DNA of 64,000 nt from the NCBI RefSeq assembly GCF_008923185.1, contig NZ_WBMT01000003.1, forward strand, positions 124,001-188,000. Direction: 5' to 3'. The position numbers and the translations under genes were made by a program. Below are positions 6,180-16,582 of the stretch, piece by piece; within the stretch, counting starts at the first letter, position 1; each line of letters opens with the position of its first letter. Below the pieces are notes generated by a model. That model ran no database searches, was not told where the DNA came from, and was given only the letters and a program-made list of their open reading frames with translations. This stretch comes from Actinomadura rudentiformis (GTDB taxonomy: Bacteria; Actinomycetota; Actinomycetes; Streptosporangiales; Streptosporangiaceae).

Positions 6180-7445
6180 TCATCGGCGCAGGGCCTCGAT
6201 GGGTTCGATGCGGCTGGCCCGCCAGGCGGGATAGAGGCCGGCGAGCAGGCCGGTGAGCGCTCCGACGGCCGGGGCGGGCAGGACGGCGAGGGGTTCGAGG
6301 ATCGGGGTCCAGTCCTTGCTGATGGCGACGCCCACGACGGCGGCGACACCGAGGCTCGTGCCGACCAGCCCGCCGAGCAGGCCGAGGGCGGCGGACTCGG
6401 TGAGGAACTGCGCGGCGATGTGCCTGCCGCGGGCGCCGAGAGAACGGCGCAGGCCGATCTCGCCGGTGCGTTCGAGTACGGCGACCAGGGTGGTGTTGGC
6501 GATCCCCACCGCCCCGATGACCAGGCAGATCCCGGCGAGGGCGAGGAAGAGCGTGCCCAGGTCGGTGTCGACCTGCTCCTTGAGCTGCTTGGGGTCCGGC
6601 GGCACCGTGACCTTGAAGCGTTCGGGCTGGTCCGGCCGGATCGCCAGGGCTGCCTGCCGGCCGATCAGCGGCGCCGCCCCGAGCCGGGTCTCGACCAGGA
6701 CCTTCGGCGCCTCCCCCTGCAGCCCGCCGGGAAGGCCCCAGAGGTTCGTGGCCGTCACCGAGGGCACCAGGACCGACAACAACGTGGCGGACTGCCGGTC
6801 GACCTCGTCGATGATCCCGATCACGGTCAGCGGGGTGGGCCCGACGAACACCGCCGGCTGGCCGTCCAGCCGGGTGATCCCCAGCCGGGACGCCGCCGCC
6901 CGGCCCAGCAGGCACACCCGTTGCCCGGTCCGCTGGTGGAAGGAGTCGAAGAGCCGTCCGGCACCGGCCCGGGCGTGCACGGCCTCCAGATATCCCGGGG
7001 ACACGGCGGTCACGGTCAGCGGCTCGCCCTGGCCCGCCGCGATCGACGGGGGACGTGCCGAGACGAGCACGCCGGACTCGCTCCCCTCGGACGTGGGGAT
7101 CGTCGGCCGCCAGAACATGCCGGCCGCCCGCACCCCGTTCAGCGCGGTGAGCCGCTGCTCGGTGTCAGAGGGGAACGCGAAGTCCGCCGTGGCGCGGTCC
7201 TCGGGCGCGTCCTCCACGGTGATCTCGGTGGCGGCCAGCGCGGTGAAACGTTTGGAGATCTGGCCACTGGCGGTGGCGGTCAGCCCGAGCACGGCGACGA
7301 ACGCGGCCACGCCGAGCAGGGTCCCGAGAACGGTCAGGGCGGCCCGGGCCGGACGCGCGAGCATCGCCGCGGTGGCCTCGTCCAGCGCGTCCCGGGCCGC
7401 GAACCGTGTCTGTTTGACCGGCGCGGCCTTGCCCCGGCCCTTCAC
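6180..7445 (-). CDS. MacB/FtsX-type ABC transporter permease
   Basis: A 421-residue permease with the MacB layout: one TM helix near residues 30-50, a large extracytoplasmic domain, then three TM helices in the C-terminal third ending in the PAWRASRIEPIEALR coupling segment. The conserved ERTGEIGLRRSLGARGRHI region precedes the last two helices. It starts at GTG 7445, sharing a GTGA overlap with the ATPase gene, so translation is coupled. In Gram-positives such permeases work with a membrane-anchored adaptor, encoded here by the first gene of the operon. The substrate is unknown; neighbouring secreted I36 proteins or cell-envelope compounds are plausible guesses. Confidence 0.88.
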   Translation of the reverse strand: MKGRGKAAPVKQTRFAARDALDEATAAMLARPARAALTVLGTLLGVAAFVAVLGLTATASGQISKRFTALAATEITVEDAPEDRATADFAFPSDTEQRLTALNGVRAAGMFWRPTIPTSEGSESGVLVSARPPSIAAGQGEPLTVTAVSPGYLEAVHARAGAGRLFDSFHQRTGQRVCLLGRAAASRLGITRLDGQPAVFVGPTPLTVIGIIDEVDRQSATLLSVLVPSVTATNLWGLPGGLQGEAPKVLVETRLGAAPLIGRQAALAIRPDQPERFKVTVPPDPKQLKEQVDTDLGTLFLALAGICLVIGAVGIANTTLVAVLERTGEIGLRRSLGARGRHIAAQFLTESAALGLLGGLVGTSLGVAAVVGVAISKDWTPILEPLAVLPAPAVGALTGLLAGLYPAWRASRIEPIEALRR

Positions 7446-8260
7446 CGGACACACCGGCTCTGGGCCTGGTGAACGGTCTGCTCCTCGTGAACGGTCTGCG
7501 CGACCTGTACGGCCTGCGCAACCTGTACGGCCTGCGCGTCCTGCACGGCCTGCACCGCCTCCGCGGTCAGACTCGCCGGATCGGTCTCCCGGAGCACGCC
7601 GTCGCGGATCACCACGGCACGTTCGCCGCGCGACGCCACCCCGGGATCGTGGGTGACCACCAGGACCGTGAAGCCGTCCGCGTGCAGTTCGTCGATCAGC
7701 GCCAGCACGGTCCGCGCGGTGGTGGTGTCGAGGTTGCCGGTCGGCTCGTCGCACAGCAGCAGGCTCGGCCGGTTGACCAGGGCGCGGGCGATCGCGACCC
7801 GCTGCCGCTCCCCGCCCGACAGCCGCCCGGCCGGCGCGTGCGCGCGGTGCCCGAGCCCGACCCGTTCCAGCGTCTCCAGAGCGCGGGCTCGGCGCTCCTT
7901 GCGCTTGGCCCCGGTGTAGAGGAGGGACAACATCACGTTCTCCATCGAGCTGCGGTGCGGCAGCAGGTGGAAGGACTGGAAGACGAACCCGATCCGGCGC
8001 CCGCGCAGGGCCGTCCGGTCCCGTTCGTTCAACGTGGCGGTGTCGATGCCGTCCAGCCGGTAGACGCCCTCGCTCGGCCGGTCCAGCAGCCCCGCGACGT
8101 TCAGGAACGTCGACTTTCCCGACCCCGAGGGACCGACCACGGTCACGTACTCGCCGCGCCGGATCACCAGGTCGGCGGGCCGCAGCGCGGGTACCGGCGG
8201 CGGACCCGGATACGTCCGGCCGACCCCGGCGAACTCGATCACCGGTGCCCGCGCGCTCAC
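7442..8260 (-). CDS. ABC transporter ATP-binding protein (MacB/LolD type) with repeat-encoded tail
   Basis: A 272-residue ABC ATPase with GPSGSGKST (Walker A), LSGGERQRVAIARAL (signature) and LLLCDEPTGNLD (Walker B). The fold ends near residue 225. It is followed by an odd tail of about 35 residues built from six-residue units of the form [AT]V[QH]xxQ, encoded by 18-bp direct repeats around 7470-7550. The family does not normally have such a tail. It starts with GTG overlapping the adaptor stop (GTGA) and ends in GTGA overlapping the permease start. Confidence 0.92.
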   Translation of the reverse strand: MSARAPVIEFAGVGRTYPGPPPVPALRPADLVIRRGEYVTVVGPSGSGKSTFLNVAGLLDRPSEGVYRLDGIDTATLNERDRTALRGRRIGFVFQSFHLLPHRSSMENVMLSLLYTGAKRKERRARALETLERVGLGHRAHAPAGRLSGGERQRVAIARALVNRPSLLLCDEPTGNLDTTTARTVLALIDELHADGFTVLVVTHDPGVASRGERAVVIRDGVLRETDPASLTAEAVQAVQDAQAVQVAQAVQVAQTVHEEQTVHQAQSRCVR

Positions 8261-9471
8261 TTCCCGACCACCACGCGATCGCCCTCGGCCAGGCCGTCCC
8301 CGCGCACCTCGACGAACCCGCCGCCCGTCGCGCCGGCGGTGACGGCGATCCGCTCCTGGGCGCCGCCCGGCGCGAGCTTGATCACCTGGGTGGATCCGTC
8401 CGCCGCCCCGTAGACCGCCGAGGCGGGCACGACCAGGACCGGCCCGTCGGTGGACGCCGCTTCGATCGTCAGCCGCACGTCCTGCCCGGCGAAGCCCTCC
8501 GGCAGCTGGGTCGTGCCCGCCACCCTGACCGGATGCCCCGCGCCGGCCGTTCCGCCGTCGGCGGTGAACGCCCCGATGCTGCGCACGCGCCCCCGCGCGG
8601 ACCGCCCGGACTCCTCCGAGAAGATCGTCACATCCATGCCGGGCTTCACCAGCTTGCGGTCCGGCGCCGTCAGCGTGCCCCTGACCTCCAGCTCACCCGT
8701 GGCCAGCTTGAGGATCGCGCCGGTCACCTGAGCGCCCAGGGTCGCCTTCACCTCGGTGGCCCGGGCGGGGAACCGCGGAACGTAGACCACCTCTCCGGCC
8801 TTCAGGTAGACGCTCGGCTTCGGCTTCGCGCGGGTCCGCGCCGAGGCCGGGTCGCCGTCCGCGGCCGCACCGCCCTCCGGCTCCTCGTTCTCCGGCTCCC
8901 CGATCGCCGGGCTTTGGGCGGCCGGGGGCTCGTAGCCGCGGTCTTCATACAGCTTGCGAACCGCGGCCTGGGTGGTCGAGCCGTAAGTCCCCTCGGCGTC
9001 GCGCACGGAATATCCAAGGCCGCGCAGCGCCCGTTGCAGCTGCTTCACATCCGGTCCCTTGCCACCTGGCCGGATGTCCCGGTACGCGGGAATGGCACCG
9101 GCCAGAGCGATCACCGGACGCCCCGAGACCTCGGCGACGACCGCGCCCGCCTTGATCCGCTGCCCCTTCTTCACGGTGGTCCGGGTGATCACCGACCTGC
9201 CCTCGGCCGCCGCCGCGGGGGTCACCTCGATCGTCCGGCCCGGCGCCACGGTGCCGCGCAGGATCACCGACTCCTTCAGCACGCGGCGTTCCACCGGCGC
9301 GGAGATCACCGAGGCCCGCGGCGGACCGGCGTCCGCCGCCACCTGCTGCGGCGATTTGATCAGAGTCGAGGCGCCCAGGCTGGCGACCGACGCCACCACC
9401 GAGGCCGCGACGATGCTGAGCAGGAACCGCCGGCGAGAACGCAGCGGCCCGTCGTCAGAGGGGGACGACAT
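8257..9471 (-). CDS. ABC efflux adaptor (MFP) with peptidoglycan-binding domain
   Basis: A 404-residue adaptor with one N-terminal TM anchor (about 14-37), a lipoyl/barrel-sandwich region, a PG_binding_1-like insertion near 128-185 (GPDVKQLQRALRGLGY, then GTYGSTTQAAV) and a beta-barrel C-terminal part with the PASAVYG segment. This architecture is typical of actinobacterial MacA-like proteins, where the adaptor spans the wall instead of a periplasm. It is the first gene of an adaptor-ATPase-permease operon joined by GTGA overlaps. No strong ribosome-binding site precedes ATG 9471, so the start could be slightly different. Confidence 0.85.
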   Translation of the reverse strand: MSSPSDDGPLRSRRRFLLSIVAASVVASVASLGASTLIKSPQQVAADAGPPRASVISAPVERRVLKESVILRGTVAPGRTIEVTPAAAAEGRSVITRTTVKKGQRIKAGAVVAEVSGRPVIALAGAIPAYRDIRPGGKGPDVKQLQRALRGLGYSVRDAEGTYGSTTQAAVRKLYEDRGYEPPAAQSPAIGEPENEEPEGGAAADGDPASARTRAKPKPSVYLKAGEVVYVPRFPARATEVKATLGAQVTGAILKLATGELEVRGTLTAPDRKLVKPGMDVTIFSEESGRSARGRVRSIGAFTADGGTAGAGHPVRVAGTTQLPEGFAGQDVRLTIEAASTDGPVLVVPASAVYGAADGSTQVIKLAPGGAQERIAVTAGATGGGFVEVRGDGLAEGDRVVVGK

Positions 9472-9784
9472 CGACGGCCCGGCTCTCAGGGCGCCGCGGG
9501 AACGGTTTCATGGGTTTCCCTCTCGCTGGAGAAACGGGACCGGGGAGGTCTACCCGCGGACGCCTCAGCGCGTTCGGCGGCGCGTCCGCGGGCGGTATCC
9601 ACCGGGGGTGGTGACGGGCGCTGGCCGGGGGTAGCGGCCAGCCACCTTGCGGGGTGCGACCAGGCAACCGGTGGCGCGGCACACCCCGCCACCATGGGCG
9701 ACATAACTTGAAGCCTCTTTAACACTTCATCCCGGTACGCGACCGGCTCGTCACCCACCGGTAATGCGGGCCTGGAATTTCCGG
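9472..9784. other. 313-bp intergenic region upstream of exporter operon
   Basis: No credible gene. It should hold the promoter of the adaptor-ATPase-permease operon on the minus strand. The one structured element seen is a 7-bp inverted repeat (9620-9626 with 9636-9642). The frames crossing it have no ribosome-binding site or recognisable product. Confidence 0.5.
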
Positions 9785-10216
9785 TCAGTCCCAGACGACG
9801 TGAGAACTGATGGAGTTGTCCATGTCGATGCCGTCGTACCAGAGCTTGTCCCTCAGGTCGGACGCCGCCGACATCGGATACAGCGACTTGGTGCAGAAGG
9901 CCTGGTTGACCCGCTGGCAGACCCGGTAGGACTTCGTGATGTGGTAATTCACGTATGACGAGGTCGTCTCGTTGAGGGACTTCGTCGGCGACAGGTTGTC
10001 GTAATAGTCGTTCGCGTAGGTGGCGTCCTCGAGCGTGAAGGCGCGGGATCCCCCCGTGTAGCCCGCGAGCCGCCAGTAGCAGATCTCCTGCTCCCTGTCG
10101 CACCTGTGCGAGGCGGACGCGGGCGGAGCCGCGACGAGAACGGCGCCAATGGCCAGAGCGCCCAGCACCACCCCTCTCATGGTCTTCGCGGTGACGCCGG
10201 TCGAGAATCCGGGCAT
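9785..10216 (-). CDS. secreted I36-family / crystallin-like protein, paralogue 2
   Basis: A 143-residue exported protein with a signal peptide ending near ASA. It shares with the other two paralogues the SHRCDxxxEICYW start, GGSRAFTLED, YANDYY, SSYVNYH and SSH motifs. It has extra cysteines (RVCQR, AFCTK) suggesting a second disulfide. Two ATGs are in frame; ATG 10216 is preferred because GGAG lies seven bases upstream, whereas ATG 10222 is too close to it. It is transcribed after paralogue 3 with 71 bp between them. Function as a protease inhibitor is inferred from family resemblance only. Confidence 0.72.
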   Translation of the reverse strand: MPGFSTGVTAKTMRGVVLGALAIGAVLVAAPPASASHRCDREQEICYWRLAGYTGGSRAFTLEDATYANDYYDNLSPTKSLNETTSSYVNYHITKSYRVCQRVNQAFCTKSLYPMSAASDLRDKLWYDGIDMDNSISSHVVWD

Positions 10217-10287
10217 GCTCATACTCCGTTCGTCGGGAATCGATTTCCTGCCTTGCGCCAGATGTCCGTGGCGCACGTGCCTTCGGA

Positions 10288-10734
10288 TCAGCTCGGGAAC
10301 CACACGTGCGAGCTGAACGTGTCGTTCATGTCGCAGCACGGGGCCCAGAAATTGTTGGTCAGGTCACCGTCCATCGTGAGCGACAGAATTCCCTTGGTGC
10401 AGCCTTCCTGGCTTACGTAACGGCATTCGGTATAACCACGGTCCCAGTGCCGGTTGATGTAGGAGGAAATGGTGTTGTTGAGCGATACGCTCGTACCGGT
10501 GTAGTTGTCGTTGGTGTAGGTGGTGTCGTTGTTGGTGAAGGCCCGGCTGGCACCGCCGTAACCGGCGTTCCGGTAGAAGCAGATCTCGTTGTGCACGTAG
10601 TCGTCGCACGCGTGCGACGCCGAGGCCGCCGGAGCAAGGGTGAGAACCCCGCCCGCCGCGGTCATGGTCAGCCCGGCCACCGCGGCGGTCTTGGCCGCCA
10701 CGCCCGCCAGCCGAGTCGAAAATCTCTGGATCAC
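10288..10734 (-). CDS. secreted I36-family / crystallin-like protein, paralogue 3
   Basis: A 148-residue exported protein with a long alanine-rich signal peptide ending at ASA. The mature region has SHACD, NEICFYRNAGY, ASRAFTNND, YTNDNY, LNNTISSYINRHW, CRYVSQEGC and an APCCDMND segment, giving the highest cysteine count of the three. GTG 10734 is preceded by GGAGGG at good spacing. Tandem arrangement with paralogue 2 and a shared scaffold with paralogue 1 imply local duplication followed by divergence in disulfides. Confidence 0.72.
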   Translation of the reverse strand: MIQRFSTRLAGVAAKTAAVAGLTMTAAGGVLTLAPAASASHACDDYVHNEICFYRNAGYGGASRAFTNNDTTYTNDNYTGTSVSLNNTISSYINRHWDRGYTECRYVSQEGCTKGILSLTMDGDLTNNFWAPCCDMNDTFSSHVWFPS

Positions 10735-10940
10735 GTTGTCCCTCCGGTAATGGGCCCGGATGACACGGGCCCGGATCGGCTCGATCCCATTGAGCGGACC
10801 GCCCGTTCGAGAGACAAGCGTGGGCCTGCGAATTTGACCGATCCCTAACAAGTCGGGCGCGGAATTCCCGGTTCTTAGCATTGTGTAAAGAAAAGCCGTG
10901 GCGGGTGCCCGCCGGGCCAGGTGGCCTGCGACGCTCCCTT

Positions 10941-10990
10941 TTGGATCCTGACCTGCGTTGGATCCTGACCTGCGTTGGACCCTGACCGAG
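10941..10990 (+). repeat. nearly three 17-bp tandem repeats upstream of lipoprotein A
   Basis: Two identical 17-bp units (10941-10957, 10958-10974) and a partial, mutated third copy end just before the GGGAGG ribosome-binding site of the lipoprotein gene. They contain GGATCCTGACC and lie where the 5' untranslated region should be. Confidence 0.75.
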
Positions 10991-11000
10991 GGAGGCGGGC

Positions 11001-12005
11001 ATGCGAGCACGTTGGGCGGGCACCGCGGCGTTCGCCGGACTGACCTTGATCGTCACAACGGCCGGCTGCTCCGGCGACGGACGGCCGAAAGCAGAGGCGC
11101 CGCCCTCGATCCCACCGCCGCCGATCGCGACGATTCCTGCCCCGGCGTCGGCGGACGGGCTCTCCCTGCCGCTGGAGGCGTACCTGCTCACCCCGGAGCA
11201 GAACGCCACGGTCCATCGCGCGCAGAGCATGCTCACGGCCGATTGCATGCGACGCTACGGCTTCTCCTATCCCGTGGCCGGGGCGCGGGGCCTGTCGGCC
11301 GCACGCGAGACGGTGAACTGGCTTTTCCTCTCCGAACGCACCGCGGCCCAGTGGGGCTATCACCAGAGCCCGGAGCGCCGGGCGGAGATCCAGCGGGCCC
11401 AGGAGGGTGGCAACGGCACGGATCTGAGCGGCGCGGCCAAGGCCGTCATGACCGGCACCGCCGCCTCCTACCAGGGAACGGCCGTGCCCAAGGGCGGATG
11501 TTTCTCCCAGGGCCGCGACGGCATCGAGGCGGGAGCGGGGAAGATCAAGCTGCCCACCTGGGCCGATCGCGGGGATCAGAAACTGCCGCCCGGTGCGCCT
11601 CCCTCGATGCGGCTCGCCTCGGAGCAGCCGTCGTACCTCCCGGAGACTCTGCTCGACGGCGCGTTCAAGTACGCCCAGGCGGACGCGCGCATGAAGAAGG
11701 TCGAGGCCGCCTGGAGCACGTGCATGAACGAGGCCGGCCACGCCTACCCCAACGTGGACGCCGTGCTTCGCGACCGGCGCTGGGAGGGAGGCGAGGGCCC
11801 TTCCACCGCCGAGATCGCCACGGCTCGCGCCGACGCCCGCTGCCGCGCGCGGGTCAACTACGCGGGGACGATGTACGCACTCCAGGTCGCGTACCAGGAG
11901 GCGCTGATCGAACAGAACGCCGAGGCCCTGGTCCAGGTGCGGCGCACCAACGAGACGATGGTCCGCAACGCGGCGGAGGTGCTGAACGGGGGCTCCACCT
12001 CATGA
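11001..12005 (+). CDS. uncharacterised secreted lipoprotein A
   Basis: A 334-residue protein with a lipobox (TTAGC, Cys23), a proline-rich linker, then a conserved domain beginning DGLSLPLEAYLLTPEQ. Four further cysteines lie in DCMRRYGF, GGCF, STCM and DARC; all are conserved in lipoprotein B at 15133, so two disulfides are likely. I do not recognise the domain. GGGAGG five bases upstream supports ATG 11001. Its last six bases overlap the end of the convergent TAXI-type gene. Pairing with lipoprotein B around a two-component system suggests a role in envelope sensing, but this is inference. Confidence 0.75.
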   Translation: MRARWAGTAAFAGLTLIVTTAGCSGDGRPKAEAPPSIPPPPIATIPAPASADGLSLPLEAYLLTPEQNATVHRAQSMLTADCMRRYGFSYPVAGARGLSAARETVNWLFLSERTAAQWGYHQSPERRAEIQRAQEGGNGTDLSGAAKAVMTGTAASYQGTAVPKGGCFSQGRDGIEAGAGKIKLPTWADRGDQKLPPGAPPSMRLASEQPSYLPETLLDGAFKYAQADARMKKVEAAWSTCMNEAGHAYPNVDAVLRDRRWEGGEGPSTAEIATARADARCRARVNYAGTMYALQVAYQEALIEQNAEALVQVRRTNETMVRNAAEVLNGGSTS

Positions 12006-12974
12006 GCCCGAGCCGGCGGCCATGACCTTCGACTCCCGGTAGTAGTTGGCCGCGCCGGGGTGCAGCGGCACGGGGAAGGTGACGAGAGCCGTGCGGTGGT
12101 CCAGGCGCCTGGCCTCGGCGTGCGCGGCGTTCAGCGTGGCCTTCGCTTCGAACAGCAGGGCGGTCAACGCCTGTGCCTCCGCCGCCGGCATGTCAGCGCG
12201 CACGACCAGCACGTTGGCGATCCCGACGGTGGTGACCTCCCCGGCCAGGGAGTAGAGGTTCGCCGGGATGGAACGAAGCTGGTACACCTCGCCGTACTTG
12301 GCCTGCAGCCCGTGGACCAGCCGGCCCACGGGCAGGATGCGGATCTGGTGGTCGCGGGCCAGCTCGGCGACCGCCGGAGTCGGCAGCCCGCCGGTGAAGA
12401 AGAAGGCGTCGATCTCGCCCCGGCCGAGCGAGGCGGCCGACGCGGCCGCCGACAGGCGATGCCGGTGGATCTCCCGGTCGAGGTCGAGCCCGGCCGCCTC
12501 CATCACCCGCGCCGCCACGATCTCGGTACCCGACCCGGCGGACCCGGTGGACACCCGCCGGCCACGCAGATCGGCGATCTCGTGGATGGGCCCGTCCGCG
12601 CTCACCACGATCTGCAGGTAGTCGTCGTAGAGCCCCGCCAGCGCGACGATCGGCAGGGCCTGGCCGAAGGGACCCTCGCCGCGCACCGCGAGCGCGGCCG
12701 AGTCCACCGTCGCGAACCCCAGATGCGCCCTGCCGTCGGCGATCAACCGCAGGTTCTCCACCGAGGCCGCCGTGGTGAGCACGGCGGTGTCGGCGGCCCA
12801 GCGGTGCCGCGCGGCCCGGGCGAAGGCCGTGCCCAGCGCGTGGTAGACACCGCCCTCGCCGCCGGTGGCGATCACCAGGCGGCTCACCGGCGCGGACGAG
12901 GCGCCGCGGGCGAAGCCGACCAGTCCGGTGAGGATGAGCACGGCGAGCACCGCCGCGGCCTGCGCCGCCTTCAT
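12000..12974 (-). CDS. TAXI-family (TRAP-type) solute-binding protein, orphan
   Basis: A 324-residue exported binding protein: hydrophobic N-terminal helix (about 5-24), then IATGGEGGVYHALGTAFA, the typical TAXI ligand-loop start, and VSTGSAGSGTE in the second lobe. TAXI proteins normally deliver ligands such as glutamate to a fused TRAP permease. No TRAP membrane gene is nearby. It is the last gene behind a response regulator and histidine kinase, so it may act as an accessory sensor that presents ligand to the kinase. Translation appears linked to the kinase through two overlapping mini-frames (see 12958-13008). Confidence 0.83.
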   Translation of the reverse strand: MKAAQAAAVLAVLILTGLVGFARGASSAPVSRLVIATGGEGGVYHALGTAFARAARHRWAADTAVLTTAASVENLRLIADGRAHLGFATVDSAALAVRGEGPFGQALPIVALAGLYDDYLQIVVSADGPIHEIADLRGRRVSTGSAGSGTEIVAARVMEAAGLDLDREIHRHRLSAAASAASLGRGEIDAFFFTGGLPTPAVAELARDHQIRILPVGRLVHGLQAKYGEVYQLRSIPANLYSLAGEVTTVGIANVLVVRADMPAAEAQALTALLFEAKATLNAAHAEARRLDHRTALVTFPVPLHPGAANYYRESKVMAAGSGS

Positions 12975-13008
12975 GACCGTGCCGCCTTCATGATTGCGCT
13001 GCCTTCAT
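12958..13008 (-). repeat. three 17-bp tandem repeats, each with ATGAAGGC, at the kinase/TAXI junction
   Basis: Read on the minus strand, 13008-12992, 12991-12975 and 12974-12958 are copies of one 17-bp unit starting ATGAAGGC. The kinase stop is in the first ATGA. That ATG opens a six-codon frame (MKAAQS) ending at 12988. Its stop overlaps the second ATG, opening MKAARS ending at 12971. This stop overlaps the third ATG, the start of the TAXI gene. The mini-frames are probably by-products of duplication but could relay ribosomes. Confidence 0.85.
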
Positions 13009-14405
13009 GACGAGGCCTCCTTGTCGTCGGGGCTGGTGGACGCGGGCAACCTGATCCTGGCGTTCACCCCGTGCGGCTCGGCCGGCAGCAGGTCCAGGGC
13101 GCCGCCGCACGCGCTGACCAGGGCCTGCGCGATGGTCACACCGAGCCCCGAACCGTCGAGGTTCTGGTCCCGCGGATGCCGCCAGAACGGCTCGGCCGCC
13201 CGGCGCAGCTCGTCGGGCAGCATGCCCGGCCCCGTGTCGACGACGTGCACGTCGACCCATCCCCCGGCCGGCTTCTTCACCTCGACGGTGACCGTGCTCC
13301 CCGCACCGGAGAACTTGACGGCGTTGTCGATCAGCGCGTCGAGCACCTGGTCCAGCGTGTCCGCCGCGGCCCGGCCCACGCTCCTGGCCGCGCCCGTCCG
13401 CACCACGCCGATCCCGGCGTCCGCCGCCACCGCCTGCCAGGCGGCGACCCGGGCGTCGGCGACGCCCCCCACATCGATGTCGGCGGCCTCGGCCGAGGTG
13501 GCCTCCGCATGCGCGTAGGCCAGCAACGCGTCGTAGAGACGCGCCATCCGCTCGATCTCCTCGACCACCATCTGGTGGTCCTCCCGGCCCTCCGGCGTGG
13601 TCTGGGAGGCGAGGTTGTCCATGGACAGCCTGAGCCGTGCCAGCGGGGTGCGCAGCTGATGGCTCGCGTACGACACGAACGCCCGCTGCCGCTCGACGAG
13701 CACGGAGACCTGCTCCGCCATCGCGTTGAACGAGGTGGCCAGCCGCCGCAGCTCCGGTGGACCGGACACGGTACCGACACGTTCGCCGAAGCGCCCCTCG
13801 GTCAGTGCCTGCGCGGTGGCGTCGAGGCGGTGTACGGGCCGTAGCAACCAGCGGGTGAGGTAGGTCGCGGCGACCACCCCGATCATCAGGACCAGCAGCC
13901 CCTCCCCGAGCAACGCGGTCCAGCTTCGCACCGTGGCGCCGCGCAGCCGTTCGGTCGGCGACACCGTGAGGGCGGCGCCGATGACCTCACCGCCCCGCCC
14001 GACCGGCTCGACGACGATCAGCGGGTCGTCGCGCCAGGGCCAGACCACCCCGGCGGTGGCCGACCGGTTGCCGGAGAGCCCCTCATCGATCTTGGAACGC
14101 ACCGAGCGGTCACCGAGGTCCACGCCCGGCCCCGAGGCCATGACCGCCTCGCCGTCCCGGCCGACGATGAGGACGCCGATGGCGAACAGCTCCTCGTACC
14201 GGCTCAGCTCCGCCCGCAGCGCGGACGTCTGCCCCGTGCGCAACGCGGTCTCCGCGAGTGAGGCGAACCGGACCGTGTCGTTCACCCGGTCCAGGAACAT
14301 CGTCTGGGTGTCCCTGGACGCGGCCGCCGTCGCCAGCGGCACGGTCAGCACGCCCAGGACGAGCACCAGGAGTGCCAGCAGGACGCCGAGCAGCCGGAAC
14401 CGCAT
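13005..14405 (-). CDS. sensor histidine kinase
   Basis: A 466-residue membrane kinase: TM1 near 5-27, an extracytoplasmic sensor of about 130 residues, TM2 near 165-187, HAMP, HisKA with SHQLRTPLARL (phospho-acceptor histidine), and HATPase with DNAVKF (N box), DTGPGM (G1) and GSGLGV (G2). The ATG overlaps the regulator stop (TGATG), so the pair is co-translated. The adjacent orphan TAXI protein is a likely partner for the extracytoplasmic sensor. Confidence 0.95.
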   Translation of the reverse strand: MRFRLLGVLLALLVLVLGVLTVPLATAAASRDTQTMFLDRVNDTVRFASLAETALRTGQTSALRAELSRYEELFAIGVLIVGRDGEAVMASGPGVDLGDRSVRSKIDEGLSGNRSATAGVVWPWRDDPLIVVEPVGRGGEVIGAALTVSPTERLRGATVRSWTALLGEGLLVLMIGVVAATYLTRWLLRPVHRLDATAQALTEGRFGERVGTVSGPPELRRLATSFNAMAEQVSVLVERQRAFVSYASHQLRTPLARLRLSMDNLASQTTPEGREDHQMVVEEIERMARLYDALLAYAHAEATSAEAADIDVGGVADARVAAWQAVAADAGIGVVRTGAARSVGRAAADTLDQVLDALIDNAVKFSGAGSTVTVEVKKPAGGWVDVHVVDTGPGMLPDELRRAAEPFWRHPRDQNLDGSGLGVTIAQALVSACGGALDLLPAEPHGVNARIRLPASTSPDDKEASS

Positions 14406-15106
14406 CAGAGTTCCTCGGCGGGACGGTCTCCGGCGCCCTGGAGCAGCGCGCCGACGGGCACCAGCCGGTAGCCGACCCCGTGCACCGCCTCCACCCGGGC
14501 ACCGGTGCGGATCTTCGTGCGCAGTGTCGACACGTGCACGTCGAGCGTCCGGGACCTGCCTTGCCAGGTGGTGCCCCACACCTCGCGGAGCAGCTGCTCG
14601 CGCATGAGGACGACGCCCTGCTCGCGGATGAGGGCCGCCAGGAGGGAGAACTCCTTCGGCGTCAGCTTGACCCGGTCGCCGTCCACGCGGGCTACGCGGG
14701 CGTCCAGGTCGACCTCCAGGCCGCCGACCGTGTGGACGCCGTTGGGCCTGGGCCGAACCCGCCGGAGCACCGCGTCCATCCGCGCCTGGAGCTCGGCGAC
14801 GCCGAACGGCTTGACCAGGTAGTCGTCGGCTCCGCAACGCAGGCCGGTGACCCGGTCCCGCTCGGTGCCGCGCGCGGACAGGATGATGATCGCGACGTCG
14901 CCGCGCCGCCGCAGCCGACGGCAGACCTCCAGCCCGTCGAGATCGGGCAGCCCGAGGTCCAGCAGGACCAGATCGCAGGCCGGGCTGGCCAGCGCGGCCG
15001 CGGCGCTGTCCACGTACTCGACCTCGTGCCCGCACTGGCTCAGCGACTTGACCAGCGCGATCGCGAAGCGCCGGTCGTCCTCCACGAGCAGAATCCGCAT
15101 CGGCAC
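14405..15106 (-). CDS. OmpR/PhoB-family response regulator
   Basis: About 233 residues: receiver domain (VEDD acidic pair, phospho-acceptor in LLDLGLPDLDG, LVKPF lysine) and a winged-helix DNA-binding domain ending GVGYRLVP. GAGGGG is five bases before GTG 15106; ATG 15100, two codons inside, gives the more usual MRILLVEDD start and cannot be excluded. It overlaps the kinase downstream and follows lipoprotein B by 26 bp, so lipoprotein B, regulator, kinase and TAXI protein look like one transcription unit. Confidence 0.95.
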   Translation of the reverse strand: MPMRILLVEDDRRFAIALVKSLSQCGHEVEYVDSAAAALASPACDLVLLDLGLPDLDGLEVCRRLRRRGDVAIIILSARGTERDRVTGLRCGADDYLVKPFGVAELQARMDAVLRRVRPRPNGVHTVGGLEVDLDARVARVDGDRVKLTPKEFSLLAALIREQGVVLMREQLLREVWGTTWQGRSRTLDVHVSTLRTKIRTGARVEAVHGVGYRLVPVGALLQGAGDRPAEEL

Positions 15107-15132
15107 CAGATCCCCTCGTCGCCTCGGCCCGG

Positions 15133-16158
15133 TCAGTCCGCCGCGTTGCCGCTGAGCACCTTGGTGGCGTTGCGGACCATCGCCTCGTTGGCCTGCTTCA
15201 CCTGGTTCAGCGAGTCCGCGTACATGTCGATCATCGCCTTCTGGTAGCCGAGCTGCAGCGCGTACATCAGCCCGCCGTACTTCACCTTGACGCGGCACCG
15301 GGCGTCGGTGACCGCGGTGGCGATCTCGGGGGCGGAGGGCACGTCGCTCGCGGCCCACCGGCCGTCCCGCAGGATCGCATCCACGCTCGCGTAGGCGTAG
15401 CCCGACTGCTTCATGCAGGCGCTCCATCCGGCGTCCGCCTGCTTGGTGCGCGGGTCGGACAGCGCGAGGTCGAACGCGCCGTTCAGCATCGACTGCGGCA
15501 GGTACCCCGGATCGGCCCGTGCCGACCGCATCGCCGGCGCGGCACCGGGAGGCGGCTTGTCATCGTCGGCGCCCTTCATCCACGGCGGCAGCTTGACCTT
15601 CGCCGCACCGGACTCGATGGAGTCCCGGCCGTGCGCGAAGCACCCGCCCTTGGGCACGTCCTGGCCGCCATGGGACTTCGCCGTCCCCGTCAGCACGGCC
15701 TGCGCGGCGGGGCTCAGCTTCGGGGCCGTGCCCGCCTGGCCCTGATTGATCTGTGCCCGCCGTTCCGTGGTCGCGTGGTAGCCCCATCGGGCGGCCTTGC
15801 TCTCGGTGAGGAACAACGGCCTGAGTACTTCCTTGACCGGCGAGAGCTCGCTGCCGCCGTTGGCGTTCACCGGATAGGAGAAGCCGAAACGCCGCATGCA
15901 GTCGGAGATGAGCATGTTCTGCGCCCGGGCGACCGTGCGGGTCTGGTCGGGCGTCAGGAAGTACGCCTCCAGCGGGAGAGAGAGGCCGTCGGCCGACTGC
16001 GGCGCCGGCGTGGTGGTGATGGTGGGCGGCGAGAAGGTCGGCCGCGCCGCCCTGGGCTCGTCCGTCCCACCCGAGCAACCGGCGGCGGTCAGGCCCAGGA
16101 CCAGGACCGCAGCTGACATCGAAGCGAGCCGCAGGCCGCTCGTGAGGTCCGACCTCAT
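15133..16158 (-). CDS. uncharacterised secreted lipoprotein B, paralogue of lipoprotein A
   Basis: A 341-residue protein with a lipobox (TAAGC near residue 26), a Pro/Thr-rich linker and the same domain as lipoprotein A, beginning DGLSLPLEAYFLTPDQ. The four extra cysteines (DCMRRFGF, GGCF, SACM, DARC) are conserved. GAGGAG five to eight bases upstream supports ATG 16158. It heads the two-component operon, and its 5' region has a perfect inverted repeat, so it may be both product and target of the regulator. Function unknown. Confidence 0.75.
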   Translation of the reverse strand: MRSDLTSGLRLASMSAAVLVLGLTAAGCSGGTDEPRAARPTFSPPTITTTPAPQSADGLSLPLEAYFLTPDQTRTVARAQNMLISDCMRRFGFSYPVNANGGSELSPVKEVLRPLFLTESKAARWGYHATTERRAQINQGQAGTAPKLSPAAQAVLTGTAKSHGGQDVPKGGCFAHGRDSIESGAAKVKLPPWMKGADDDKPPPGAAPAMRSARADPGYLPQSMLNGAFDLALSDPRTKQADAGWSACMKQSGYAYASVDAILRDGRWAASDVPSAPEIATAVTDARCRVKVKYGGLMYALQLGYQKAMIDMYADSLNQVKQANEAMVRNATKVLSGNAAD

Positions 16159-16196: not shown

Positions 16197-16582
16197 GACG
16201 AAGACTAGATCGTTTGCATCCGGATGCCATCGGTCCGCATGTCACGAATTGGTTCCAGATGATCGCCACCGCGGTGGCGCCGGGCACGGTCCAACGCGAG
16301 CCCCCAGCGTGCCCATGTGCCGGTGAGCACCCGTGCGGACCACGGCGGCACGGTCGACCGATCTTTGCCGCGGCCTTGGTGGCCGGGTGCGGGGACAGGG
16401 CACGAACGGCGGTGGCGATGGCGGCTCTGCGGGCTCGGCAGCACGCCACAAATGAAGCGCAGACCTCCGTGACACCTCCATGTCACGGGAAATTTATTGA
16501 TCGTTCCCTAACATCCGCCGACGGGCCGTAGAGCCCCCGTCACCATCCGCTGCACTGACATTCGCCGCCTGGCGCTCGCCGC
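16197..16582. other. intergenic region between lipoprotein B and hemB
   Basis: No supported gene. It should carry the promoter of the lipoprotein B operon and the end of the hem operon. Bases 16562-16605 hold three degenerate copies of a 14-15-bp unit (core TCGCNGCCT) that span the hemB stop codon. Confidence 0.5.

What the first reader, a model, noticed from the sequence alone, without database searches (positions are those of the whole stretch)
11001..16158. Two-component system with orphan TAXI receptor, bracketed by paralogous lipoproteins
Lipoprotein B, regulator, kinase and TAXI protein form one unit, and lipoprotein A converges on its end. TAXI proteins normally need a TRAP permease, which is absent. 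A ligand-binding protein that signals to the kinase, with two four-cysteine lipoproteins as co-sensors or outputs, would be an unusual envelope-sensing system.
Basis: partly seen in the sequence, partly recalled or inferred. Interest (0 to 1): 0.6.

Follow-up and report, generated by a model that had tools for sequence, protein, structure and literature searches.

The report
Transport-type binding protein wired to kinase
In many soil actinobacteria a nutrient-binding protein normally used for import sits with a signalling kinase and its regulator instead of a transporter, and here that set probably switches on its own genes and a handful of exported and surface proteins through a shared DNA switch.

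Summary
In detail: RR-HK-TAXI are tightly packed, lipoprotein B precedes RR by 32 bp, lipoprotein A converges with a 6-bp overlap. The genome (10.7 Mb, 97% complete) has no DctM, DctQ or GltS match, and both its TAXI genes lie beside an HK and RR.

In 100 family genomes TAXI fall into two lineages, beside a fused DctM (transport) or beside HK-RR (sensory); the two labels need one change on the tree. The kinase link is conserved; the lipoproteins are not part of it (no TAXI, HK or RR hit in 40 homologous loci; absent from the syntenic A. barringtoniae site).

New: a direct repeat with 11-bp spacing, GTTARRGA-N4-TCAA, occurs four times in the genome: upstream of lipoB-RR-HK-TAXI, between a secreted I36-like gene and lipoA, upstream of a MacA-like exporter operon, and upstream of an unlinked gene whose relative precedes RR in A. 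barringtoniae.

Best reading: a TAXI-coupled two-component system, probably derived from a TAXI-TRAP regulator, that controls exported and envelope proteins; lipoproteins look like outputs. TAXI-HK contact, ligand and operator function are inferred, not shown.

The parts
12000..12974 (-). TAXI solute-binding protein, 324 aa, sensory lineage, no lipobox Cys (Arg23)
   Evidence: TIGR02122 E 1.1e-77; PF16868; AlphaFold model pLDDT 93.6 matches solved TAXI structures at TM 0.73-0.83, 8u79/1us4/8s4j at 0.82-0.83; HK-linked lineage in tree
13005..14405 (-). Membrane sensor histidine kinase, 466 aa: TM1, extracytoplasmic alpha/beta domain (about 28-157), HAMP, HisKA, HATPase_c
   Evidence: (47 of 47 aligned members have HAMP/HisKA/HATPase_c; weak dCache_1 in 6 of 47); model
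14405..15100 (-). OmpR/PhoB-type response regulator, 231 aa
   Evidence: PF00072 and PF00486
15133..16158 (-). Lipoprotein B, first gene of the unit, 32 bp upstream of RR
   Evidence: no homologue found in orthologous loci
11001..12005 (+). Lipoprotein A, paralogue of B (56%), convergent with TAXI
16497..16512 (-). Putative RR operator 1 (GTTAGGGAACGATCAA), 338 bp upstream of lipoB-RR-HK-TAXI
10834..10849 (-). Putative RR operator 2 (GTTAGGGATCGGTCAA), between divergent I36-like gene (99 bp) and lipoA (151 bp)
9708..9723 (-). Putative RR operator 3 (GTTAAAGAGGCTTCAA), 236 bp upstream of macA-like operon
   Evidence: (18.5 bits, not in the training set)
10288..10734 (-). Small secreted protein, weak peptidase-inhibitor I36 match; putative output
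   Evidence: PF03995 E 6e-4, just below its cut-off; operator 2 upstream
9785..10222 (-). Second small secreted protein, 47% identical to the previous one; no Pfam match
8257..9471 (-). MacA/HlyD-like adaptor with peptidoglycan-binding domain; putative output
   Evidence: PF01471, PF13437; operator 3 upstream
7442..8260 (-). ABC ATPase of the MacB-like exporter (named from sequence, no profile search)
   Evidence: its homologues sit between the adaptor and permease homologues in L227, L245 and L251
6180..7754 (-). MacB/FtsX-like ABC permease (open frame; true start further in)
   Evidence: PF02687, PF12704

Best explanation
RR-HK-TAXI is a self-contained sensory module: a TAXI venus-flytrap protein captures a small (probably carboxylated or amino-acid-like) ligand outside the membrane and signals, by contact, to the extracytoplasmic domain of the adjacent kinase; the kinase phosphorylates the OmpR-type regulator, which binds an 11-bp-spaced direct repeat (GTYARR-N5-NYCAAR) and controls its own operon plus exported/envelope products (lipoproteins B and A, small secreted proteins, a MacA/MacB-like exporter, and an unlinked secreted protein). 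It probably descends from regulators of TAXI-TRAP transporters and has lost the transporter. Shown by computation: gene order, no TRAP/GltS match in the genome, two TAXI lineages, co-inheritance of TAXI-HK-RR, and the genome-wide distribution of the repeat. Inferred: TAXI-HK contact, ligand, that this RR binds the repeat, direction of control, evolutionary direction.
For: Both TAXI of this genome are HK/RR-linked. Family survey of 100 genomes: of 83 TAXI found by phmmer in the 78 fetched stretches, 39 have an HK within 900 bp and no co-directional DctM, 38 have a co-directional DctM within 950 bp, 6 neither; 0 of the 38 have a window-type HK hit within 900 bp. On the tree of 82 TAXI the two labels need one change, unlabelled rows left out. 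Of 29 further same-genus TAXI matches I fetched 20; 19 have HK and RR next door. 70 non-redundant TAXI/HK/RR triples: distance correlations of TAXI with HK parts 0.90-0.95, with RR 0.94; in five same-genome pairs of modules TAXI and HK are each 36-39% identical, in five cross-genome pairs both are 52-71%. Repeat: GTTARRGANNNNTCAA has 4 exact hits in 10.7 Mb, 0 for the reversed control, 3 of 4 in this locus; the 4th is 128 bp upstream of a gene whose product is 68% identical to the protein preceding RR in A. barringtoniae. In other loci the repeat is in 12 of 89 RR-upstream 150-bp regions against 0.0008 expected per region; three altered spacings 0 of 89. In L126, L135 and L074 it lies between divergent RR and DctM genes. 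Precedents: BctC-BctE (PMC5812351, passages); XylFII-LytS, TorT-TorS, LuxP-LuxQ (PMC6321045, passages).
Against: No physical evidence. The sensor domain does not stand out in the co-divergence test: TAXI correlates at least as well with the cytoplasmic part, and the partial correlation is larger for it (0.74 against 0.38). The tree is a quick one without bootstraps, and the branch holding the permease-linked TAXI has SH-aLRT 92, below the tool's star. 77 of 89 RR-upstream regions lack the strict repeat, and 8 of the 12 hits are one clade (L081-L090), so about three independent groups. The narrower pattern with one mismatch, 2 hits, had 1 hit for its reversed control. The GH6-slot orthologues L298-L300 have no exact match to GTYARRGANNNNYCAA. 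Operator 1 lies 338 bp from lipoB, far for an activator site. The module is patchy in the genus (25 of 65 genomes match the TAXI at E <= 1e-20). Of 93 TAXI in the named loci, 20 fall in neither class at the chosen distances.
Confidence: 0.7

Rival explanations
1. TAXI is an output of the regulon rather than its receptor: the kinase senses something directly with its own domain, and TAXI scavenges or buffers a ligand.
For: TAXI is the last gene of the operon and would be co-regulated with it; the kinase has its own folded extracytoplasmic domain with weak dCache matches in 6 of 47 members, so it could bind a ligand itself.
Against: In most kinase-linked loci TAXI is convergent with HK, not in its operon, yet stays adjacent; HK-linked TAXI form a lineage apart from transport TAXI; no TRAP or GltS partner for a scavenged ligand was found in this genome.
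Confidence: 0.15
2. TAXI is still a transport protein, working with an unlinked or non-TRAP permease.
For: TAXI-GltS shows TAXI can use a non-TRAP carrier (PMC12344293, abstract and passages); the genome has two TctA permeases and is only 97% complete.
Against: No DctM, DctQ or GltS match in the genome; both TctA lie beside a TctC-like receptor of their own (judged by eye); tree and linkage place it with kinase-linked TAXI.
Confidence: 0.07
3. The two lipoproteins are co-sensors that form one envelope complex with TAXI and kinase.
For: Proximity; lipoB starts the unit; the repeat lies upstream of both.
Against: In 40 lipoprotein loci fetched there was no hit to the window's TAXI, HK or RR; 3 of 40 are directly upstream of a MacA-ABC-permease set like the one at 6180-9471; the window-type RR-HK-TAXI orthologues examined (L115, L116/L297, L117, L296, L298-L300) show no lipoprotein homologue.
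Confidence: 0.08

Closest known systems
BctC-BctDE citrate system of Bordetella (TctC-type binding protein that signals to sensor kinase BctE)
   Same: Solute-binding protein encoded beside a two-component system; in BctC the ligand-bound protein is needed for signalling (PMC5812351, passages)
   Different: TctC-type, not TAXI; BctC also serves a TctAB transporter, while here no transporter partner was found and predicted targets are exported/envelope proteins
XylFII-LytS, TorT-TorS, LuxP-LuxQ (binding-protein-coupled sensor kinases)
   Same: Extracytoplasmic binding protein stimulates a kinase by contact (PMC6321045, passages)
   Different: Other binding-protein families; contact not shown here
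TAXI-TRAP transporter (VcGluP-VcGluQM, Thermus TTHA1157)
   Same: Same TAXI fold: model TM 0.82-0.83 to 8s4j/1us4/8u79; positions of VcGluP Tyr45, Ser75 and Gly156 kept
   Different: No membrane component found; VcGluP Gln93 position is Thr89; separate lineage from the family's permease-linked TAXI
TAXI-GltS of Bordetella pertussis (BP0403)
   Same: TAXI protein without a TRAP permease (PMC12344293, abstract and passages)
   Different: BP0403 has extra N-terminal domains and works with GltS; no GltS match here

Membership tests
TAXI solute-binding proteins (TIGR02122/PF16868) | Profile match above curated cut-off and TAXI fold | tested here: met
   TIGR02122 261 bits against cut-off 84; PF16868 204 against 27; fold
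TAXI-TRAP transporter | Fused DctQM membrane component in the operon or genome | tested here: not met
   No DctM or DctQ match in the genome; the same searches find them in 7 and 5 of 14 control genomes
TAXI-GltS transporter | GltS permease | tested here: not met
   PF03616 no match in the genome, 2 of 14 controls ring
Two-component system, OmpR/PhoB type | HK with HisKA/HATPase_c and RR with Response_reg/Trans_reg_C, adjacent | tested here: met
Two-component system, OmpR/PhoB type | Direct-repeat operator with about 11-bp spacing at target promoters | tested here: inconclusive
   Repeat upstream of the operon and three other genes or operons, 4 hits genome-wide; recognised by conservation only, binding untested. 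The 11-bp norm is recalled
Binding-protein-coupled sensor kinase | Binding-protein gene conserved beside the kinase | tested here: met
Binding-protein-coupled sensor kinase | Direct contact and ligand-dependent signalling | not testable with these tools
   No complex prediction or bench work available; co-divergence does not single out the sensor domain

The most novel reading that the evidence does not exclude
A whole TAXI lineage in Actinomycetota has left transport for signalling: each TAXI is the dedicated receptor of an adjacent kinase, the regulators share an 11-bp direct-repeat operator, and in Actinomadura the output has been rewired from a TRAP transporter to a small set of exported and lipid-anchored proteins carried in an exchangeable gene position upstream of the regulator.
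Probability: 0.45. Interest if true: 0.7.

Novelty: new variant of a known kind. Interest (0 to 1): 0.55.

Why it matters
Genes annotated 'TRAP transporter solute-binding subunit' in actinobacteria may often be signal receptors instead. The linkage gives a ready way to find ligands of many uncharacterised kinases: express the TAXI and screen ligands, with a predicted four-site regulon in this genome as the read-out. It would add TAXI to the binding-protein families known to act as kinase receptors and explain some 'orphan' TAXI genes.

Tried and rejected
Lipoproteins as core parts: rejected. GltS or TctA as transport partner. Shared 9- to 12-mers between lipoA, lipoB and RR upstream regions: nothing convincing; the repeat was seen by eye only when upstream regions of the gene before RR were printed. 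A first pattern with the wrong spacing gave nothing in the loci and two 2-mismatch hits in the window. PWM enrichment was modest: RR upstream 19 of 89 at p <= 0.05, DctM 14 of 59, TAXI 12 of 167; the strict repeat test is clearer. Sensor-domain co-divergence did not separate interface from descent. Sensor domain against solved structures by sequence: nothing at E <= 5; Foldseek of the full kinase listed kinases aligned over their cores or whole length, no distinct match for the sensor domain (best 50 of 810 shown). VcGluP Gln93 was first guessed to align with Asp91; the alignment put it at Thr89. Remnant of the secreted gene under operator 1: none found. Sigma-70 promoters and Rfam: none. Paper searches for TAXI or solute-binding proteins with kinase or two-component terms listed no paper whose title or abstract describes this pairing; the library is open-access only, and I did not open the hits.

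Rows dropped or odd: in the survey I fetched every hit down to about E 1e-15 except the window's own and G020:C674; the L110 and L111 TAXI escaped phmmer; TAXI rows under 250 aa were left out of the tree; L035_6002 counted as neither class (DctM 920 bp away) and as transport later; L118's second TAXI is called transport by my rule though an HK lies 42 bp away. Cut-offs differ slightly between (S 40 with the window, T 37, N 5; S 39, T 38, N 6, window not counted). Named loci overlap the survey genomes (for example L117 and L076).
Full report
WHAT IS THERE. On the minus strand: lipoB 16158-15133, RR 15100-14405, HK 14405-13005, TAXI 12974-12000; lipoA 11001-12005 runs the other way and overlaps the end of TAXI by 6 bp. 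RR and HK overlap; HK and TAXI are 30 bp apart. The TAXI scores 261 bits against TIGR02122 (cut-off 84). Its AlphaFold model (44-sequence alignment, pLDDT 93.6) matches solved TAXI proteins at TM 0.73-0.83. The kinase has HAMP, HisKA and HATPase_c domains and an extracytoplasmic alpha/beta domain between two membrane helices, with weak dCache matches in 6 of 47 aligned members. LipoA and lipoB are 56% identical and are the only lipoB-query hits in the genome at E <= 0.01. A lipobox Cys (36 of 42 rows) plus four invariant Cys (42 of 42) mark their family.

NO TRANSPORT PARTNER FOUND. The genome (10.7 Mb, 50 contigs, completeness 97%) has no match to DctM, DctQ or GltS. Two TctA permeases exist, each next to a TctC-like receptor (judged by eye). 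There are two TAXI genes, and the second also lies beside an HK and RR.

TWO KINDS OF TAXI. In 100 genomes of the same family, the window's included, I fetched 78 stretches around the strong TAXI hits (two such hits, the window's own and one at a contig end, were not fetched) and located DctM in the same genomes. Of 83 TAXI detected in these stretches, 39 lie within 900 bp of an HK without a co-directional DctM, 38 have a co-directional DctM within 950 bp, and 6 have neither, some at contig ends; 0 of the 38 have a window-type HK hit within 900 bp. On a quick maximum-likelihood tree of 82 TAXI, the kinase-linked and permease-linked labels need one change once the 5 unlabelled rows are left out; the branch around the permease-linked group has SH-aLRT 92. 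The usual arrangement is TAXI convergent with HK; the window's co-directional RR-HK-TAXI is rarer. In 7 of the 39, DctM lies in the same fetched stretch. Among named genomes (best 80 of 585 relatives kept; 93 TAXI: 49 kinase-linked, 24 permease-linked, 20 neither) the module occurs in Actinomadura, Micromonospora, Actinoplanes, Streptosporangium, Streptomyces, Nocardiopsis, Amycolatopsis, Modestobacter and others; the loci labelled Armatimonadetes/Armatimonadota, Chloroflexi/Chloroflexota, Vicinamibacteria and Bacillota were permease-linked or neither. In the window's genus 25 of 65 genomes have a match at E <= 1e-20, and 19 of 20 loci fetched, out of 29 matches in other genomes, have HK and RR adjacent; L311 does not. 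TAXI, HK and RR diverge together across 70 non-redundant triples. In five same-genome pairs of modules TAXI and HK are each 36-39% identical, while in five cross-genome pairs, picked by hand, both are 52-71%. This shows co-inheritance; it does not show contact.

THE LIPOPROTEINS ARE NOT PART OF THE CONSERVED CORE. Lipoprotein relatives occur in 142 of 297 order genomes at E <= 1e-4. Of 40 such loci fetched, taken from the better hits, none has a hit to the window's TAXI, HK or RR, and 3 sit directly upstream of a MacA-ABC-permease set homologous to window 6180-9471. None of the TAXI loci L035-L112, L115-L194 and L296-L315 has a lipoA/lipoB hit. In A. barringtoniae the same chromosomal site (hemC-hemD-hemB, then RR-HK-TAXI, then Prim-Pol, protein kinase, hemL; names other than Prim-Pol recalled from sequence) has RR-HK-TAXI but no lipoprotein, I36-like or MacA hit. 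Whether these were gained in the window's line or lost in the other is not shown.

THE GENE BEFORE THE REGULATOR. In the orthologous operons examined the gene preceding RR varies but looks exported in all but one case (judged by eye from the N-terminus): a 163-aa secreted protein in A. barringtoniae and its relatives in A. alba and L296 (43-55% identical to one another), a GH6 glycosidase with a lipobox-like N-terminus in L298-L300, lipoB in the window. The exception is L117, where RR-HK-TAXI sits among ergothioneine-type genes.

A SHARED OPERATOR. Reading the regions upstream of this position showed a motif around GTTARGGA-NN-KDTCAA, i.e. an 11-bp-spaced direct repeat (GTYARR ... NYCAAR) of the kind OmpR/PhoB regulators bind (recalled). 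With up to one mismatch, GTTARGGANNGRTCAA has two hits in the 10.7-Mb genome, both in this locus, against one for the reversed control. The wider GTTARRGANNNNTCAA has four exact hits and none for the reversed pattern: upstream of lipoB-RR-HK-TAXI (16497), between the I36-like gene and lipoA (10834), upstream of the MacA-like operon (9708), and C25:52570. In the window, allowing one mismatch, 100 shuffles gave a mean of 0.07 and never 3. The fourth site lies 128 bp upstream of the unlinked relative (68%) of the protein that precedes RR in A. barringtoniae, where the same repeat is present. Outside the loci used to define it, the strict repeat is in 12 of 89 RR-upstream 150-bp regions (6 hits in 1.1 Mb elsewhere, so 0.0008 expected each); with a slightly relaxed form 13 of 89, and three altered spacings of that form 0 of 89. 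The 12 fall in three clades. In L126, L135 and L074 the repeat lies between divergent RR and DctM genes, which fits an origin as regulator of a TAXI-TRAP transporter. The motif was found by eye, so the genome-wide count, the unlinked fourth site and the other clades carry the weight.

MECHANISM. Most likely TAXI binds a ligand and signals to the kinase, as BctC does to BctE (PMC5812351, passages) and XylFII, TorT and LuxP do to their kinases (PMC6321045, passages). The ligand pocket keeps the VcGluP Tyr45 and Ser75 positions but has Thr at the Gln93 position (residues from PMC11574862, passages; alignment), so glutamate cannot be assumed. The regulator then controls its own operon and exported products. 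The window's TAXI lacks the lipobox Cys, so it is presumably anchored by its N-terminal helix or secreted.

NOVELTY. The kind (binding protein coupled to a sensor kinase) is known. A TAXI lineage devoted to it, its operator and its exported regulon were not found in nine text searches of an open-access library. A second pairing exists in Micromonospora: NIT-domain kinase, roadblock protein and TAXI in one run of genes.

Noticed in passing
L127, L132, L141, L152, L157, L162 (Micromonospora): Run of a NIT-domain histidine kinase, a Roadblock/LC7 protein and a TAXI protein, in five of the six (not L127) with DctM-TAXI just upstream: a second kinase-TAXI pairing. Domains were checked by Pfam in L132 only; the others by similarity.
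   Followed up: partly
L117:366-8147: In MAG RYN_229, RR-HK-TAXI lies between ergothioneine-type genes (egtA/egtB-like and a class-II amidotransferase on one side, a histidine-specific methyltransferase PF10017 on the other), hinting at a betaine-type ligand there (egt names recalled).
   Followed up: no
12962-13011: 17-nt tandem triplication at the TAXI start: two 6-codon mini-ORFs (MKAAQS*, MKAARS*), each ATGA-overlapping, stand between the kinase stop and the TAXI start.
   Followed up: no
10941-10987: Another 17-nt tandem repeat (TTGGATCCTGACCTGCG, 2.8 copies) just upstream of lipoA.
   Followed up: no
16466-16489: Inverted repeat (9 pairs, terminator-like on the + strand) between operator 1 and lipoB; the scan expected about two such sites by chance.
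   Followed up: no
L298, L299, L300: GH6 glycosidase with a lipobox-like N-terminus as the gene preceding RR-HK-TAXI in three same-genus genomes.
   Followed up: partly
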